Shown one piece after another: positions 51,678 to 64,000 of a stretch of DNA of 64,000 nucleotides. Each line of letters begins with the position of its first letter. The first letter of the stretch is position 1. Source of the stretch: Bacillus zhangzhouensis (GTDB lineage Bacteria > Bacillota > Bacilli > Bacillales > Bacillaceae); NCBI GenBank assembly GCA_025809375.1, contig CP099514.1, positions 1,054,001 through 1,118,000 of the forward strand, given 5' to 3'. Under the pieces are notes generated by a model. The model did not search any database, was not told the origin of the DNA, and was given only the letters and a program-made list of their open reading frames with translations. Both the position numbers and the translations under genes were made by a program.

Positions 51678-51877
51678 ATGGATCGTCATATATGCTCGCG
51701 AAACAGCCCGCAAATCTTCTTTATCAGTTGACCTGTTTCTAACACTTCGTATACGGCTGTCCCATAAAATTTCTTTCGAAAAATGAACATGTATATTTGC
51801 ATGTGGAAAGCAAAGCGGTAGACCGGTATTTCGGGGTGTGATACAATTTTGACATACAGAATCTGCTCTAATTGGTT

Positions 51878-52010
51878 TTCTAGGGTTCCGTGCGGGTGGC
51901 GCAGTCTGGACCGAGAGAAAACACATAGGGTCTAGACAATAGACCGTATGGACACGGAGGGATAAAAGCCCGGGAGATTTGATCAAACGATCGATTTCCG
52001 GGCTTTTTTT
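51878..52010 (+). promoter_or_regulatory. Guanidine-I (ykkC) riboswitch with terminator
   Basis: The aptamer region holds the conserved ykkC features: TTCTAGGGTTCCG, GGTGGC, CTGGACCGAGAG, AAACACATAGGG, then ATGGACACGGAGGGATAAAAGCCCGG. An intrinsic terminator, GCCCGGGA pairing with TTCCGGGC plus T7 (51968-52010), follows and is disrupted when guanidine binds. It switches on the exporter genes ykkCD. Confidence 0.93.
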
Positions 52011-54006: not shown

Positions 54007-54258
54007 AAATTGACGAGCGTTGAAAAGGAATAGTAAGCAGGAACTGGTGCGTAAAGAGAGCAAATGATGTGCTGAAACATTTGCCGCAGACAGCTGCTGA
54101 ACCTGCCCTTTGAGCCTTAGAGGAAAAATCTAAGCGCGTGCCTGGCGTTACAGGAGTTGAGTGGAATAAGCAGATCGCATGCTTATTCAATGAAGGTGGT
54201 ACCACGGAAAGTCCCTTTTCGTCCTTTACATAAGGAGAAAAAGGGATTTTTTTTGTTT
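54007..54258 (+). promoter_or_regulatory. Proline T-box leader with terminator
   Basis: The T-box sequence AAGGTGGTACCACGG is at 54193-54207. The specifier codon CCT (Pro) sits at 54102-54104 in GAACCTGCC. The terminator is GTCCCTTTT paired with AAAAGGGA plus T8 (54211-54256). Uncharged tRNA-Pro binding would stabilise the antiterminator and turn on proBA, as known in B. subtilis. Confidence 0.92.
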
Positions 54259-54289: not shown

Positions 54290-55387
54290 ATGAAAAAGCA
54301 AAGGATCGTCATAAAAATTGGCAGCAGTTCATTAACAGAGCAAAAAGGAGCCATTGATGAACAAAAGATCAGGGATCATGTAAGAGCCATAGCAAAGCTC
54401 AAAGAAGCACGTCATGAAATCATTTTAATTTCGTCGGGAGCCGTTGCAGCAGGATTTGGCAGCTTAGGCTATCCATCAAGACCTGTGACCTTAAAAGGGA
54501 AACAGGCAGCTGCCGCCGTTGGACAGAGCTTGTTAATGCAGAAATATACAGAGCTTTTTTCACAGTTTCACATGACACCCGCTCAAATGCTTTTAACACG
54601 TAATGACTTTTCAGATCGAACAAGATATCGAAATGCTTACGCAACGATGATGGAGCTGCTGGAAAGAAAAATTTTGCCGATCATCAACGAAAATGATTCA
54701 GTCTCCATCGAGGAGCTTACCTTTGGGGATAATGACATGCTGTCAGCTCTTGTCAGCGGACTAATCCATGCAGACCAATTGATCATATTAACAGACATCA
54801 ATGGCATTTATGATGCCAATCCAAATGAGCATCCTGAGGCGAAGCGGTTTGATGTCCTGACCCACATTTCAGAAGAATTGTTTTCATATGCAAAGAGCAC
54901 GGGTTCAAAGGTTGGCACAGGCGGAATGAAATCGAAGCTGTCTGCTGCACAAACGGCACTTTCACTTGGTGTGAAAGTCTTCATTGGCACAGGCACTGGG
55001 GAAGACAAGCTGCTTCGCATTCTTGCGGGTCAAGGCGACGGAACGTATATCGGTGAACAGGACTTATCAGCCGTGAATAACCGCCGTCAATGGATTCAAT
55101 TCCACTCGCCAGTCTCTGGAAAGATCATGATTGATGCAGGAGCGGAAGCGGCGATTTTGCATAATGGCAGAAGCCTTCTTCCAGCAGGAGTCATTGATGT
55201 TGCTGGTGACTTTTCTAAAGGAGAAGTCGTAGAAGTCGTTGGTCCAAATGGATTAGTTGGTAAGGGACAAACCTTGTACGCATCCGATGAGCTTCTCGGC
55301 ATTAAAGGAATGCGAAGTGACGAGCTTTCAAAAGAGAAGCCTGAGGTCATACACCGGGATCACTGGGTACAGCATGTACAAAACTGA
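54290..55387 (+). CDS. proB: Glutamate 5-kinase
   Basis: A 365-residue enzyme for the first step of proline synthesis. The amino acid kinase domain includes [55 protein letters not shown] and [23 protein letters not shown] domain closes the protein (residues about 280-355). Proline feedback inhibition is known for the family. It is followed 12 bases later by proA in one transcript. Confidence 0.93.
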
Positions 55388-60390: not shown

Positions 60391-62679
60391 TTATGCGTGC
60401 TGCGCCAGCTTTTTACGAGCGACTTCAGCAGCTGTGACCATGTTTTTCAAAGCAGCAATGGTTTCAGGCTCTTGTCTAGTTTTTAGACCACAATCCGGAT
60501 TCACCCAGAAGCGATCTGCCGGACAAACGTTCAGCGCATCATCAATGATTTTGCTCATTTCTTCAACAGATGGAACGCGCGGGCTATGGATGTCATAAAC
60601 GCCTAGTCCAAGTCCTTTCAAATACGGGTGCTTTTCTAAGTAATCGAGGAATTCGCCATGACTGCGTGAATGTTCAATTGTAATCACGTCAGCATCCAAG
60701 TCTTCGATCGTATCGACAATATCTTCGAAGTTACTGTAGCACATATGTGTATGAATTTGTATGTCATTTTGAACGGATGATGTGGATAAACGGAATGACT
60801 CTGCGGCCCAGTTTAAATATTCTGCCCAATCACTTTCTTTGAGCGGAAGTCCTTCTCTTAGCGCAGGCTCATCCACTTGGATGACTTGAATACCTGCTGC
60901 CTCTAACGCTTCTACCTCTTTACGCAAAGCGAAAGCGATTTGGAAAGCAATGTCTTTCCTAGAGATATCCGTTCTTGGGAAAGACCAGTTTAAGATGGTG
61001 ACAGGTCCTGTCAGCATTCCCTTGACTTTCTTCTCTGTTAAACTTTGTGCGTAAACCGTCTCTTTCACTGTCATTGGTTCTGTAAACTCTACATCTCCAT
61101 AAATGATTGGCGGCTTCACGCAGCGTGATCCATAGGATTGCACCCAAGCAAATTTCGTAAAGGCAAATCCGGCCAGCTTTTCGCCGAAGTATTCCACCAT
61201 GTCTGTACGTTCAAATTCTCCATGTACAAGCACATCCAGGCCAATTTCTTCTTGAATATCAATCCATCGTTTTGTTTCTTTCTTTATAAATTCATCATAC
61301 TCTGCATCTGTCCACTCCTTTTTACGCCACTTTTGACGAGCACTGCGCACTTCAGCAGACTGCGGGAAGCTGCCAATTGTTGTTGTTGGAAGAAGCGGGA
61401 GCTCAAGAGATTCGTTTTGGATACGCAGGCGTTCTTCAAAGGACGCTGGGCGTTTAAAATCCTTTGATGAAAGATTGTTGCGTTCAGCTGTTAGATCCGC
61501 ATTGGTTCCTTTTGCGAACTCTTTTAAGGTAAGAAGTGCTTGTGCTGCTTCGTTAATATCGGCATCAATGGCAGCTGCTCCTTTTGTTAAACCTTCTTTT
61601 AGTAGTGTCAATTCAGCCAGCTTTTCAGTGGCATAAGACAGTCCGTTTAATAGTTTTTCTTCAAGCTGTTCGCTTGGGTGTTTGGCAACTGGTACATGCA
61701 GTAAGCTGCTTGATGGCTGCAGCCACACTTCTTTTGGCTGAACGTCAGCAATGAATTCAGAAATAAAGGATAATCTTTCACCAAGATCTGATCTCCAAAT
61801 ATTTCTTCCATCAATGACGCCTGCTGCTAAAATTTTATCTTTCGGGAAGCCGTGCTCTTTCACTTGATCAAGGTTGCGCCCTTGATCATGGACAAAATCA
61901 AGACCGATTGCTTCAACAGGATATGTGATAAGCTCTTCATACGCATCTACTGAATCAAAGTATGTTTGTAGAAGAATGTTCAACCCAGGTACGGCTTCTT
62001 TGACCGTTTGATAGATTTCTTTTACGGCTTTTACATCTTCACTGGAAGCTGTGACAAGTGCAGGTTCATCAATTTGAACCCATTTAACGCCGGCTTCTTC
62101 CAGTTCTTTTAAAAGCTGAGTATAAAGCGGCACTAGACGCTGCTGGATTTCTTTCACTTCATTTGCTTCATAACCTTTAGAAAGTGAGACAAATGTATAA
62201 AGACCAAGTACAACCGGTTTTGTTTCAACACCAAATACCCTTTTCACCTTTTCGTAAGCTTCAAGCGGTTTGTTGTGTGTGAGTGTAAATTCTGTGCTTT
62301 TTTCGTATTCTGGAACGATGTAGTGATAGTTTGTATTAAACCATTTTGTCATTTCACTTGAGACAGCATCTTTAGTACCTCTTGCCATCGCGAAGTATGT
62401 ATCTAGCGGGTCTTTTAAGCTGCGGAAGCGCTCTGGAATCCAATTGAACATAACAGCAGTATCCAGCACGTGATCATAGAAGGTAAAGTCTCCAGAAGGA
62501 ACAACATCAATTTGTTGATCGATTTGTGTTTTAATGGCAGTTAAAAATTGTTCATCCAAAGTGCTTAAGAGGGTTTCGCGGTCTGTTTGACCTTTCCAGT
62601 AAGACTCAAGTGCTTTTTTCCATTCTCTGTTTAAACCAATTCGCGGAAAGCCTAGATTACTTGTTTTAACAATTGTCAA
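60391..62679 (-). CDS. metE: Cobalamin-independent methionine synthase
   Basis: A 762-residue zinc enzyme that transfers a methyl group from 5-methyl-THF-triglutamate to homocysteine. The N-terminal half starts [25 protein letters not shown]. The C-terminal catalytic half has [25 protein letters not shown], and the zinc ligands in [13 protein letters not shown] and [14 protein letters not shown] 62679 is the start, with GGAGG eight bases upstream and the usual family length; the open frame extends into the leader. It is controlled by a B12 riboswitch, unlike B. subtilis metE. Confidence 0.94.
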
Positions 62680-62700
62680 TTCCAATTCCTCCTCTAAATA

Positions 62701-62748
62701 TAAAAAGACATTTACGCTCATGATCAAGATTGATGAGGTAAATGTCTG
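62701..62748 (-). terminator. Leader terminator of metE
   Basis: On the minus strand AGACATTTAC pairs with GTAAATGTCT, followed by T5. It lies between the B12 aptamer and the metE ribosome site and is the likely expression platform. Confidence 0.8.
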
Positions 62749-62814
62749 GTTTAAAAGACAAAATGTGTGTGCGAAATAAGGCGTGAGTATCACTGACGCT
62801 TTTTCCGACATCTC

Positions 62815-62990
62815 CTATCAACCGTAGGGGGGATATGTGATAGAGCGGCTGGTATCCTGGCTGGTGAATCTGCATGCTTTTCATCCTTCCCATCCTGATG
62901 ACAGTGGATTTATGAGAAAAGTTCTCCTCACTCACAGTGGCGGGACGGCGCCCAATTTTCACCGGTCTTCCCAATTAAAATTCAACGTGT
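62815..62990 (-). promoter_or_regulatory. Cobalamin (B12) riboswitch upstream of metE
   Basis: Read on the minus strand: GGGAAGACCGGTGAAAATTG, GGGCGCCGTCCCGCCACTGTGAG, a variable arm, then CCAGCCAGGATACCAGCCG (B12 box). These are the conserved elements of the B12 riboswitch in the right order and spacing. It is followed by a terminator and metE. Coenzyme B12 should stop metE expression. No S-box motif is present. Confidence 0.93.
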
Positions 62991-63032
62991 GATCGAATGA
63001 CCGACTCTTAAACTATGAATTTATTGTGTTCG

Positions 63033-63061
63033 ATTATATAACGTTCACTTCATTTCGTCAA
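63033..63061 (-). promoter_or_regulatory. Promoter of the metE leader
   Basis: On the minus strand TTGACG (63061-63056), a 17-base spacer and TATAAT (63038-63033), about 40 bases before the riboswitch. Confidence 0.8.
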
Positions 63062-63085
63062 AGTAAATTTTGAATAATTTTAATT

Positions 63086-63121
63086 AAAAAAATCCTGAGA
63101 AAATTCTATCTATTCTCAGGA
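63086..63121 (-). terminator. Terminator of ispA
   Basis: On the minus strand TCCTGAGAATAG pairs with TTCTCAGGA and is followed by T7. Confidence 0.85.
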
Positions 63122-63132
63122 CCTTATTTACG

Positions 63133-64000
63133 TTATAGAGATAAAAGATCTGCTTCCAATGTTTTTTCTAAAAGGACATCAGGCGCAGTTAAATATAAAA
63201 ATCCATTCCCTACAAGGGTTTTCGACTGCTTTAATGGAAGGGTTCTTCTGACAAGCTGAGCATAGACCTCAGGCTCTGTCAGCTTGCGCTGGAACGCTTC
63301 TTCTTCGGCATTTTTGATAATGGCTAGTGCACCGCTTACGTGAGGGGCAGCCATTGAAGTCCCTGTGAGTCTGCCATATTTATGGTTAGGGAGAGTGGAT
63401 AAAATGTCTTCTCCTGGAGCAACGAGGTCGATTTCTTTATTGGCATTAGAAAAGTCAGAGGATTTTCTAGCAAGGGAAACAGAACCGACGGCAATGACTT
63501 CATTGTATGCTGCTGGATAGGAGAACTCTTCCGTACGCTCGTCTCCGTCTCCTTCATTTCCTGCTGCACACACAACAAGCACACCGCTTTTTACCGCATT
63601 CTGAATGGCTTCCTGCAGAGCTGGCTCATTGCTTGGACCACCGAGAGACATGGAGATAATATCAGCCTTCTGCTCTGCGGCATAGTTGATGCCATCAATG
63701 ATCCATTCATATTTTCCGCTTCCATTTTCACCGCTAAGAACTTTCACGATAAGCAGCTTGGCTTCAGGGGCAACCCCTAAAATTCCGCCATTTTGATCTG
63801 TTGCTGCAATCGTTCCTGCTACATGGGTACCATGTCCATTGTAGTCTTTTACATTTTCAGCATCTCCATTGTCATCATCGGTGAAGTTCTTCCCTCCGAT
63901 AATCTGATCTTTTAAATCGGGATGCTCTGTGTCACAGCCTGTATCAAGGACAGCAATGGTTATGCCTTTTCCTTTGAAGCCACTTGACCAAAGTTCGGGT
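63133..64000 (-). CDS. ispA: Intracellular serine protease (subtilase), partial
   Basis: The C-terminal ~288 residues of an intracellular subtilisin; the start lies beyond the window. The catalytic triad is visible: Asp in IAVLDTGCDTEHPDL, His in YNGHGTHVAGTIAA, Ser in GTSMAAPHVSGALA. The oxyanion Asn is in VVCAAGNEGDGD. No secretion signal can be judged. The C-terminal tail (APDVLLEKTLEADLLSL) is typical of the ISP group. Position after metE matches B. subtilis. Confidence 0.9.
   Translation of the reverse strand, partial: PELWSSGFKGKGITIAVLDTGCDTEHPDLKDQIIGGKNFTDDDNGDAENVKDYNGHGTHVAGTIAATDQNGGILGVAPEAKLLIVKVLSGENGSGKYEWIIDGINYAAEQKADIISMSLGGPSNEPALQEAIQNAVKSGVLVVCAAGNEGDGDERTEEFSYPAAYNEVIAVGSVSLARKSSDFSNANKEIDLVAPGEDILSTLPNHKYGRLTGTSMAAPHVSGALAIIKNAEEEAFQRKLTEPEVYAQLVRRTLPLKQSKTLVGNGFLYLTAPDVLLEKTLEADLLSL

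What the first reader, a model, noticed from the sequence alone, without database searches (positions are those of the whole stretch)
62701..63061. metE is under a B12 riboswitch, not a SAM riboswitch
The minus-strand leader has the CACTG core, the B12 box (GCCAGGATACCAGCC-like) and a downstream terminator, while no S-box element is present. In B. subtilis metE is an S-box gene. Here two effectors are split: SAM acts on metIC, B12 on metE. This predicts that the organism owns a B12-dependent MetH and a B12 uptake system, and stops making MetE when B12 is available.
Basis: partly seen in the sequence, partly recalled or inferred. Interest (0 to 1): 0.75.

Follow-up and report, generated by a model that had tools for sequence, protein, structure and literature searches.

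The report
Vitamin B12 riboswitch decaying without MetH
The RNA switch that would shut off one methionine-making enzyme when vitamin B12 is present is really there, but this bacterium has lost the B12-using enzyme that gave the switch its purpose, and the switch's B12-sensing part appears to be accumulating damage, as in three relatives.

Summary
Observation confirmed: a full-length cobalamin riboswitch (RF00174, 86 bits, cut-off 31.5) lies at 62830-63021(-) before metE, with promoter, predicted antiterminator and terminator, and no S-box. Such leaders are ordinary (5 of 17 other Bacilli loci scanned).

The central prediction fails. The only metH match is a deletion scar behind an S-box-yitJ gene, and PF02310 (B12-binding) has no match. 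A btuFCD-like importer, an adenosyltransferase and QueG remain.

Of 44 genus genomes, 21 have full metH and all carry RF00174 on metE; of 23 without, 4 do, this one included. Those 4 have different metH scars, from at least 3 losses, and the lowest metE-aptamer scores of their 17-genome clade: 66.8-99.6 bits against 107.8-114.4. The aptamer changes faster on metH-less branches (0.26 vs 0.12 of the fourfold-site rate); the expression platform does not on average (0.17 vs 0.17). Here the aptamer ratio is 0.91.

Most likely the aptamer is a relic losing its brake on metE, resembling mutations selected in metH-deleted M. tuberculosis cultures. Loss of B12 binding is inferred, not shown.

The parts
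63033..63061 (-). promoter TTGACG-17-TATAAT of the metE leader
   Evidence: both hexamers identical in the 17 genomes aligned
62830..63021 (-). cobalamin riboswitch aptamer (RF00174), 86 bits; altered relative to 13 metH-bearing relatives (107.8-114.4 bits)
62953..62954 (-). two changed core positions, invariant in the other 16 genomes aligned, that disrupt the CCGG/CCGG stem of the aptamer (P4, helix name recalled)
62815..62843 (-). putative anti-antiterminator CUAUCA:UGAUAG next to the aptamer's 3' end; its extra ACC:GGU pairs of relatives are lost here
   Evidence: (predicted folds)
62807..62823 (-). antiterminator 5' arm GGUUGAUAGGAGAUGUC
   Evidence: conserved in the alignment
62728..62746 (-). 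antiterminator 3' arm, shared with the terminator 5' arm
62702..62746 (-). intrinsic terminator (stem predicted -14.6 kcal/mol, then UUUUU)
62688..62695 (-). ribosome-binding site AGAGGAGG
   Evidence: sequence
60391..62679 (-). metE, cobalamin-independent methionine synthase, 762 aa, TTG start
   Evidence: TIGR01371 1124 bits; relatives in 44 of 44 genus genomes

Best explanation
The metE leader was built as a B12-off transcription switch. Ligand-bound aptamer favours the anti-antiterminator, hence the terminator and no MetE; without ligand the antiterminator forms and metE is read. In this lineage metH was deleted, so the switch lost its purpose and, if it still worked, would starve the cell of methionine whenever B12 enters through the retained importer. 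The aptamer has since been drifting at close to the fourfold-site rate, hitting core pairs, while the terminator and antiterminator, which must stay balanced for metE to be read at all, are kept. The most likely present state is a weakened or dead B12 sensor with metE largely B12-insensitive. Shown here: the element, the scar, a BtuF orthologue and QueG in all 17 close relatives, at least three losses of metH by parsimony, and on average a faster aptamer but not platform after loss. Inferred: the switching mechanism, loss of B12 binding, ON as the default state, and metH loss preceding aptamer decay.
For: metH scar and no PF02310 match. Importer, adenosyltransferase, QueG. Genus tally, 44 genomes, coordinates matched by eye: RF00174 next to metE in 21 of 21 with full metH and 4 of 23 without. 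In the 17 close relatives the scores separate completely: 13 metH+ at 107.8-114.4, 4 metH- at 66.8-99.6. Private aptamer changes (one genome differs, 16 agree; 195 columns): 6 in 13 metH+ genomes, 33 in 4 metH- genomes (10 here); platform 15 and 10 (0 here). On a fixed tree, aptamer change relative to fourfold sites is 0.264 vs 0.116 (likelihood ratio p 3e-5), platform 0.170 vs 0.166 (p 0.93). Sister pairs, one-sided: this genome 11 vs 1 (p 0.010), G025 9 vs 2 (p 0.020). Core changes away from Rfam capitals, counted by me: 10 in metH-, 1 in metH+ genomes (p 1.3e-4). S-box control, compared by eye: the yitJ S-box scores 94.1-97.8 in the 4 metH- and 93.8-96.6 in the 13 metH+ genomes. The metH remnant here has changed at 6 of 123 aligned first/second codon positions, the aptamer at 11 of 195 columns; intact metH genes show 0-2 private first/second-position changes in their first 270 bases.
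Against: Only 3-4 losses, so the tests lean on few events; the likelihood ratio treats fractional estimated changes as counts and ignores overdispersion. G013 and G019 individually (0.26, 0.17) are within the range of some metH+ branches (0.28, 0.34). In G025 the platform also changed faster than in its sister (6 vs 1, p 0.044), G013 and G019 have more platform changes than G020 and G035, and G019's terminator is weaker (-10.8 kcal/mol; but so are those of metH+ G035 and G042, -10.7 and -9.8). So specificity to the aptamer is an average. G019 shows no more non-standard pairs (8) than metH+ genomes (6-8). The aptamer here still scores 54 bits above the cut-off and its B12 box is unchanged relative to the clade. 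Binding was not measured. NCBIfam's B12-specific models for BtuF, BtuC and BtuD match below their cut-offs, so the importer's substrate rests on orthology and the adjacent adenosyltransferase. PF02310 was not run on a metH-bearing close relative as a positive control.
Confidence: 0.68

Rival explanations
1. The switch still works. B12 represses metE although MetH is gone, and the organism lives where B12 is scarce or methionine is available; B12 would inhibit its growth in minimal medium.
For: 86-bit full-length match, clade-typical B12 box and intact platform. Precedent: M. tuberculosis CDC1551, naturally metH-defective, is said to keep a functional switch, and clinical metH-defective isolates show no equivalent switch SNPs (PMC10924821 and PMC4428469, passages).
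Against: Core stem disrupted, 12 of 50 scored pairs non-standard vs 6-8 in metH+ relatives; aptamer ratio 0.91 of the fourfold-site rate.
Confidence: 0.2
2. Reverse order: the aptamer broke first, MetE became constitutive, metH became dispensable and was then deleted.
For: The same end state is expected; remnant and aptamer have drifted by similar amounts (6 of 123 vs 11 of 195).
Against: None of the 21 metH-bearing genomes has a metE aptamer below 107.8 bits, although such intermediates would be expected; two of the four losers (G019, G025) are only mildly decayed.
Confidence: 0.2
3. The changed aptamer is adapting to another corrinoid or ligand rather than decaying.
For: The platform is kept; natural cobalamin switches differ in corrinoid selectivity (PMC9600662, passages).
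Against: Changes are scattered, several break pairs, and they differ among the four genomes; no B12-dependent methionine synthase was found to match.
Confidence: 0.05
4. Assembly or sequencing error in metH or the leader.
For: None found.
Against: Single contig, 99.99% completeness listed; the scar ends differ in four genomes, with stops and frameshifts; MetE and YitJ frames are open.
Confidence: 0.02

Closest known systems
Cobalamin riboswitch of metE in Bacilli (RF00174), alone or in tandem with an S-box (B. clausii, Priestia megaterium; passages)
   Same: Same family, same gene, same OFF logic by platform anatomy
   Different: No tandem S-box here; the partner metH is a scar; the aptamer has lost core pairing
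Mycobacterium tuberculosis metE B12 riboswitch with defective metH (CDC1551 and laboratory metH deletants)
   Same: metE under a B12 switch in a cell lacking MetH; riboswitch mutations arise under B12 in culture (17 of 22 colonies; PMC10924821, passages)
   Different: There only 1 of 30 mouse-lung colonies was mutated and natural metH-defective isolates keep the switch unchanged (PMC4428469, passages); here natural lineages carry changed aptamers in at least three losses
Engineered B. subtilis carrying only the P. megaterium SAM-Cbl-riboswitch metE locus (PMC9600662, passages)
   Same: No metH, B12-switched metE; [quoted passage not shown]
   Different: Constructed strain with an intact switch; here a natural lineage with an altered one
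B. subtilis-like metE under an S-box, no metH (7 genus genomes scanned; B. subtilis itself lacks metH and a metE B12 switch)
   Same: metH-less Bacillus relying on MetE
   Different: No B12 element on metE there; S-box instead

Membership tests
RF00174 cobalamin riboswitch | score above the gathering threshold over the full model | tested here: met
   86 vs 31.5 bits, 1-189/189
RF00174 cobalamin riboswitch | conserved B12 box and paired core | tested here: inconclusive
   B12 box as in the rest of the clade (one departure from the Rfam letters, shared by the relatives shown); the CCGG/CCGG core stem is disrupted and a neighbouring pair (columns 256-264) is lost
RF00174 cobalamin riboswitch | binds AdoCbl or another corrinoid | not testable with these tools
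   needs in-line probing or a reporter
B12-off transcription-terminating metE switch | mutually exclusive terminator and antiterminator between aptamer and start codon | tested here: met
   predicted only: in folds of the RNA up to the terminator loop, GGUUGAUAGG pairs with CC(C)UCAUCAAUC in 15 of 17 genomes (not G035, G042), and the inner AGAUGUC:GACAUUU pairing also forms in this genome, G024 and G025; the terminator stem folds in the 16 genomes where the script located it (not located in G023)
B12-off transcription-terminating metE switch | B12-dependent MetH in the same genome that replaces MetE | tested here: not met
   only a metH scar; no PF02310 match
S-box (RF00162) metE leader | SAM aptamer in the leader | tested here: not met
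   no match in 62600-63200 at E up to 10
Tandem SAM-Cbl NOR gate of metE | both aptamers in one leader | tested here: not met
   only RF00174; both seen before metE in 6 of the 17 other loci scanned

The most novel reading that the evidence does not exclude
Natural, repeated suppressor evolution. In the B. pumilus group, each loss of metH turned B12 (still imported, probably for QueG) into a metE-silencing poison, and selection, not only drift, broke the metE aptamer in at least three lineages while largely keeping the expression platform. That would be the wild counterpart of the suppressor mutations found in metH-deleted laboratory strains.
Probability: 0.3. Interest if true: 0.65.

Novelty: new member of a known kind. 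Interest (0 to 1): 0.5.

Why it matters
Here one clade of 17 genomes offers sister pairs in which the enzyme that gives the switch its purpose (MetH) is present or recently lost, so the fate of an orphaned riboswitch can be followed, and whether it dies by drift or by selection against B12 toxicity can be tested with reporters in laboratory B. subtilis. It also warns against inferring a working MetH, or B12 repression, from a riboswitch hit alone: the hit here passes its threshold by 54 bits while its partner gene is a scar.

Tried and rejected
Chance match of the riboswitch: rejected. A hidden S-box in the leader: rejected. A second, intact metH elsewhere: not found in this genome by PF02965, PF02310 and the YitJ/homocysteine-methyltransferase search; for the other three metH-less close relatives only PF02965 and the YitJ search were run. 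Loss of B12 uptake as the explanation: not supported; a BtuF orthologue (61-64% identity to the BtuF behind the RF00174 of G005) is in 17 of 17 close relatives, but the whole operon was read only in this genome; the stretches of four others fetched were not examined. A general decay of riboswitches in these genomes: not seen in the S-box control, judged by eye. A single shared metH loss: contradicted by the tree and the different scars, except that G013 and G019 may share one; regain of metH by transfer was not tested. Thermodynamic folding of the whole leader was uninformative (z -0.70).

Literature: the listings (20 of 24 papers; 15 of 27; 15 of 47; 6 of 6; none found; 12 of 38) showed no report of natural metE-riboswitch decay in metH-less Bacillus; the library holds open-licence papers only, so absence there is weak. 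Five papers were seen as passages found by term, not read whole: PMC9481103, PMC9600662, PMC4428469, PMC10924821, PMC5994023 (the last has no mention of methionine or cobalamin in its main text). Sudarsan 2006, Rodionov 2004 and Warner 2007 were not read (recalled, or cited by the papers seen). YxjG/YxjH naming, helix numbering and the view that QueG is a B12 enzyme are recalled.

Full report
What is there. cmscan of the window finds one RF00174 cobalamin aptamer at 62830-63021 on the minus strand, 86 bits, full model length. With relaxed thresholds nothing else credible lies in 62600-63200, in particular no S-box. Upstream is TTGACG-17-TATAAT. Downstream the sequence offers two helices that share one arm: an antiterminator (GGUUGAUAGGAGAUGUC with GACAUUUACCUCAUCAAUC) and a terminator (GACAUUUACCUCAU with AUGAGCGUAAAUGUC, then UUUUU). 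In predicted folds of the RNA up to the terminator loop, the outer antiterminator pairing (GGUUGAUAGG with CC(C)UCAUCAAUC) appears in 15 of 17 genomes; G035 and G042, both metH-bearing, fold the competing hairpin instead. The inner AGAUGUC:GACAUUU part forms in three (this genome, G024, G025). The terminator stem folds in the 16 genomes where the script located it. A CUAUCA:UGAUAG hairpin beside the aptamer could block the antiterminator. This is the anatomy of a B12-off, terminator-type switch; it was predicted, not measured. The gene is metE (TIGR01371, 1124 bits).

How unusual. Of the 80 metE loci found I scanned 17 further Bacilli loci (Paenibacillus, some other Bacilli and non-Bacilli were left out). 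Five have a cobalamin aptamer alone before metE, six have it together with an S-box, two have only a nearby S-box, and in the other four nothing was reported directly before metE (three of these have an S-box about 2 kb upstream). In the genus, the metE loci of the seven metH-less genomes scanned have an S-box. PMC9481103 and PMC9600662 (passages) describe the tandem form and its logic: B12 means MetH can work, so MetE is shut off.

The missing partner. PF02965 finds one metH match in this genome, 47 model positions with two stops. It lies behind an S-box and a yitJ-like gene (bifunctional homocysteine methyltransferase/MTHFR, 613 aa). Compared with the metH-bearing sister G024, about the first 180 bases of metH and two pieces near its 3' end remain, and the middle is gone. 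PF02310 has no match in the genome, while 12 of 14 control genomes ring; no metH-bearing close relative was used as a control for that search. A btuF-btuC-btuD-like operon ending in a PduO-type adenosyltransferase remains. The adenosyltransferase passes its NCBIfam cut-off, but the B12-specific BtuF, BtuC and BtuD models match below theirs, so B12 as substrate rests on orthology to the BtuF behind an RF00174 in G005 and on the gene order. QueG is present. The genome's only RF00174 is the one before metE. A MetE-like 380-aa paralogue lies behind an S-box at C1:3155592. In B. subtilis, strains in a metE-deleted background depended on a supplied methionine synthase in medium without methionine (PMC9600662, passages), so I do not expect the paralogue to replace MetE, but this was not tested.

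The comparative test. All 44 genus genomes searched have metE. Matching coordinates by eye, 25 have RF00174 directly upstream of metE: 17 close relatives (MetE at least 92% identical) and 8 others (70-77%). Full-length metH (PF02965 over about 250 positions, frame 1142-1159 aa) occurs in 21 genomes, all of them among these 25. The four exceptions are this genome, G025, G019 (contig length and aptamer score equal those of B. pumilus GM3FR) and G013. The other 19 genomes have neither. In the 17-genome clade the metE aptamer scores 107.8-114.4 bits in the 13 metH-bearing genomes and 99.6, 97.6, 86 and 66.8 in the four without; the 8 more distant metH-bearing genomes have 108.4-115.1.

Independence. 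A tree of four loci (12,110 columns) puts this genome beside metH-bearing G024 and G025 beside metH-bearing G004; G013 and G019 are sisters. The four scars have different ends. By parsimony that is three losses, or four; regain of metH by transfer was not tested.

Rates. Private changes in the aptamer: 0-1 in each of 13 metH-bearing genomes (6 in all), 10, 10, 7 and 6 in the four others; in the platform 15 and 10, with 0 in this genome. With branch lengths fitted on the fixed tree, aptamer change relative to 481 fourfold-degenerate sites is 0.91 here, 0.74 in G025, 0.26 in G013, 0.17 in G019 and 0.06 on the stem of G013+G019 (counted as metH-less, which is conservative), together 0.264; the 26 other branches give 0.116 (p 3e-5). 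The platform gives 0.170 and 0.166 (p 0.93). Against a clean story: some metH-bearing branches reach 0.28-0.34, and one very short one 1.83 with about one change. G025's platform changed more than its sister's (6 vs 1, p 0.044), and G013 and G019 have more platform changes than G020 and G035. Sister tests for the aptamer, one-sided: 11 vs 1 (p 0.010) and 9 vs 2 (p 0.020). The S-boxes of the same genomes show no consistent drop by eye; the yitJ S-box, for example, scores 94.1-97.8 in the four and 93.8-96.6 in the thirteen.

What changed. At the 65 positions that Rfam prints as capitals, metH-bearing genomes depart from their own majority at three columns; two of these changes go towards the Rfam letter, one (in G035) away. 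The four metH-less genomes carry ten changes away from it: two here, six in G013, one each in G019 and G025 (counted by me from the list; test). Here the two lie in the CCGG/CCGG stem, and 12 of 50 scored pairs are non-standard, against 6-8 in metH-bearing genomes, 11 in G013, 9 in G025 and 8 in G019. The metH remnant of this genome has changed at 6 of 123 first and second codon positions and the aptamer at 11 of 195 columns: the sensor drifts at about the speed of the pseudogene.

Interpretation. Shown: an orphaned metE B12 element whose sensor on average evolves fast after metH loss, in at least three losses, with a BtuF orthologue and QueG retained. Inferred: that the sensor no longer binds well and metE is largely B12-blind. 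Published work makes this a plausible escape: metH-deleted M. tuberculosis is inhibited by B12 and yields metE-riboswitch mutants (17 of 22 colonies on B12 plates, though only 1 of 30 from mouse lungs; PMC10924821, passages), while natural metH-defective isolates showed no such changes (PMC4428469, passages). The pumilus-group case would be a natural instance. Drift explains the ratios without selection (on the metH-less branches none exceeds 1); selection is not excluded. The platform's relative constancy fits either view, because losing the antiterminator would silence metE.

Noticed in passing
G000:C1:2671500-2678500 (L257): The btuFCD-adenosyltransferase-like operon of this genome has no RF00174 (the genome's only one is before metE), unlike genome G005 whose btuF follows one; B12 uptake here appears not to be under B12 riboswitch control.
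   Followed up: partly
G000:C1:3155351-3156599: S-box followed by a 380-aa MetE-C-terminal-like paralogue (24% identity to MetE), resembling the yxjG/yxjH genes of B. subtilis (name recalled).
   Followed up: no
window 54011-54229 (+): T-box leader (124 bits) before ORFs at 54290 and 55400 that look like proB and proA by eye.
   Followed up: no
window 51869-51978 (+): Guanidine-I riboswitch (83.7 bits).
   Followed up: no
L048 2282-2837: Shouchella shacheensis metE has an S-box plus a low-scoring cobalamin aptamer (71.4 bits); possibly another decaying element, metH status not tested.
   Followed up: no
17 close relatives: S-box number varies: 7 in G035, 8 in this genome and G013, 9 in the other 14; which regulated genes differ was not examined.
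   Followed up: no
L011 11250-12713: A transposase-like ORF (487 aa, by eye, not searched) lies about 1.6 kb upstream of the S-box of the yitJ-metH scar in this genome.
   Followed up: no
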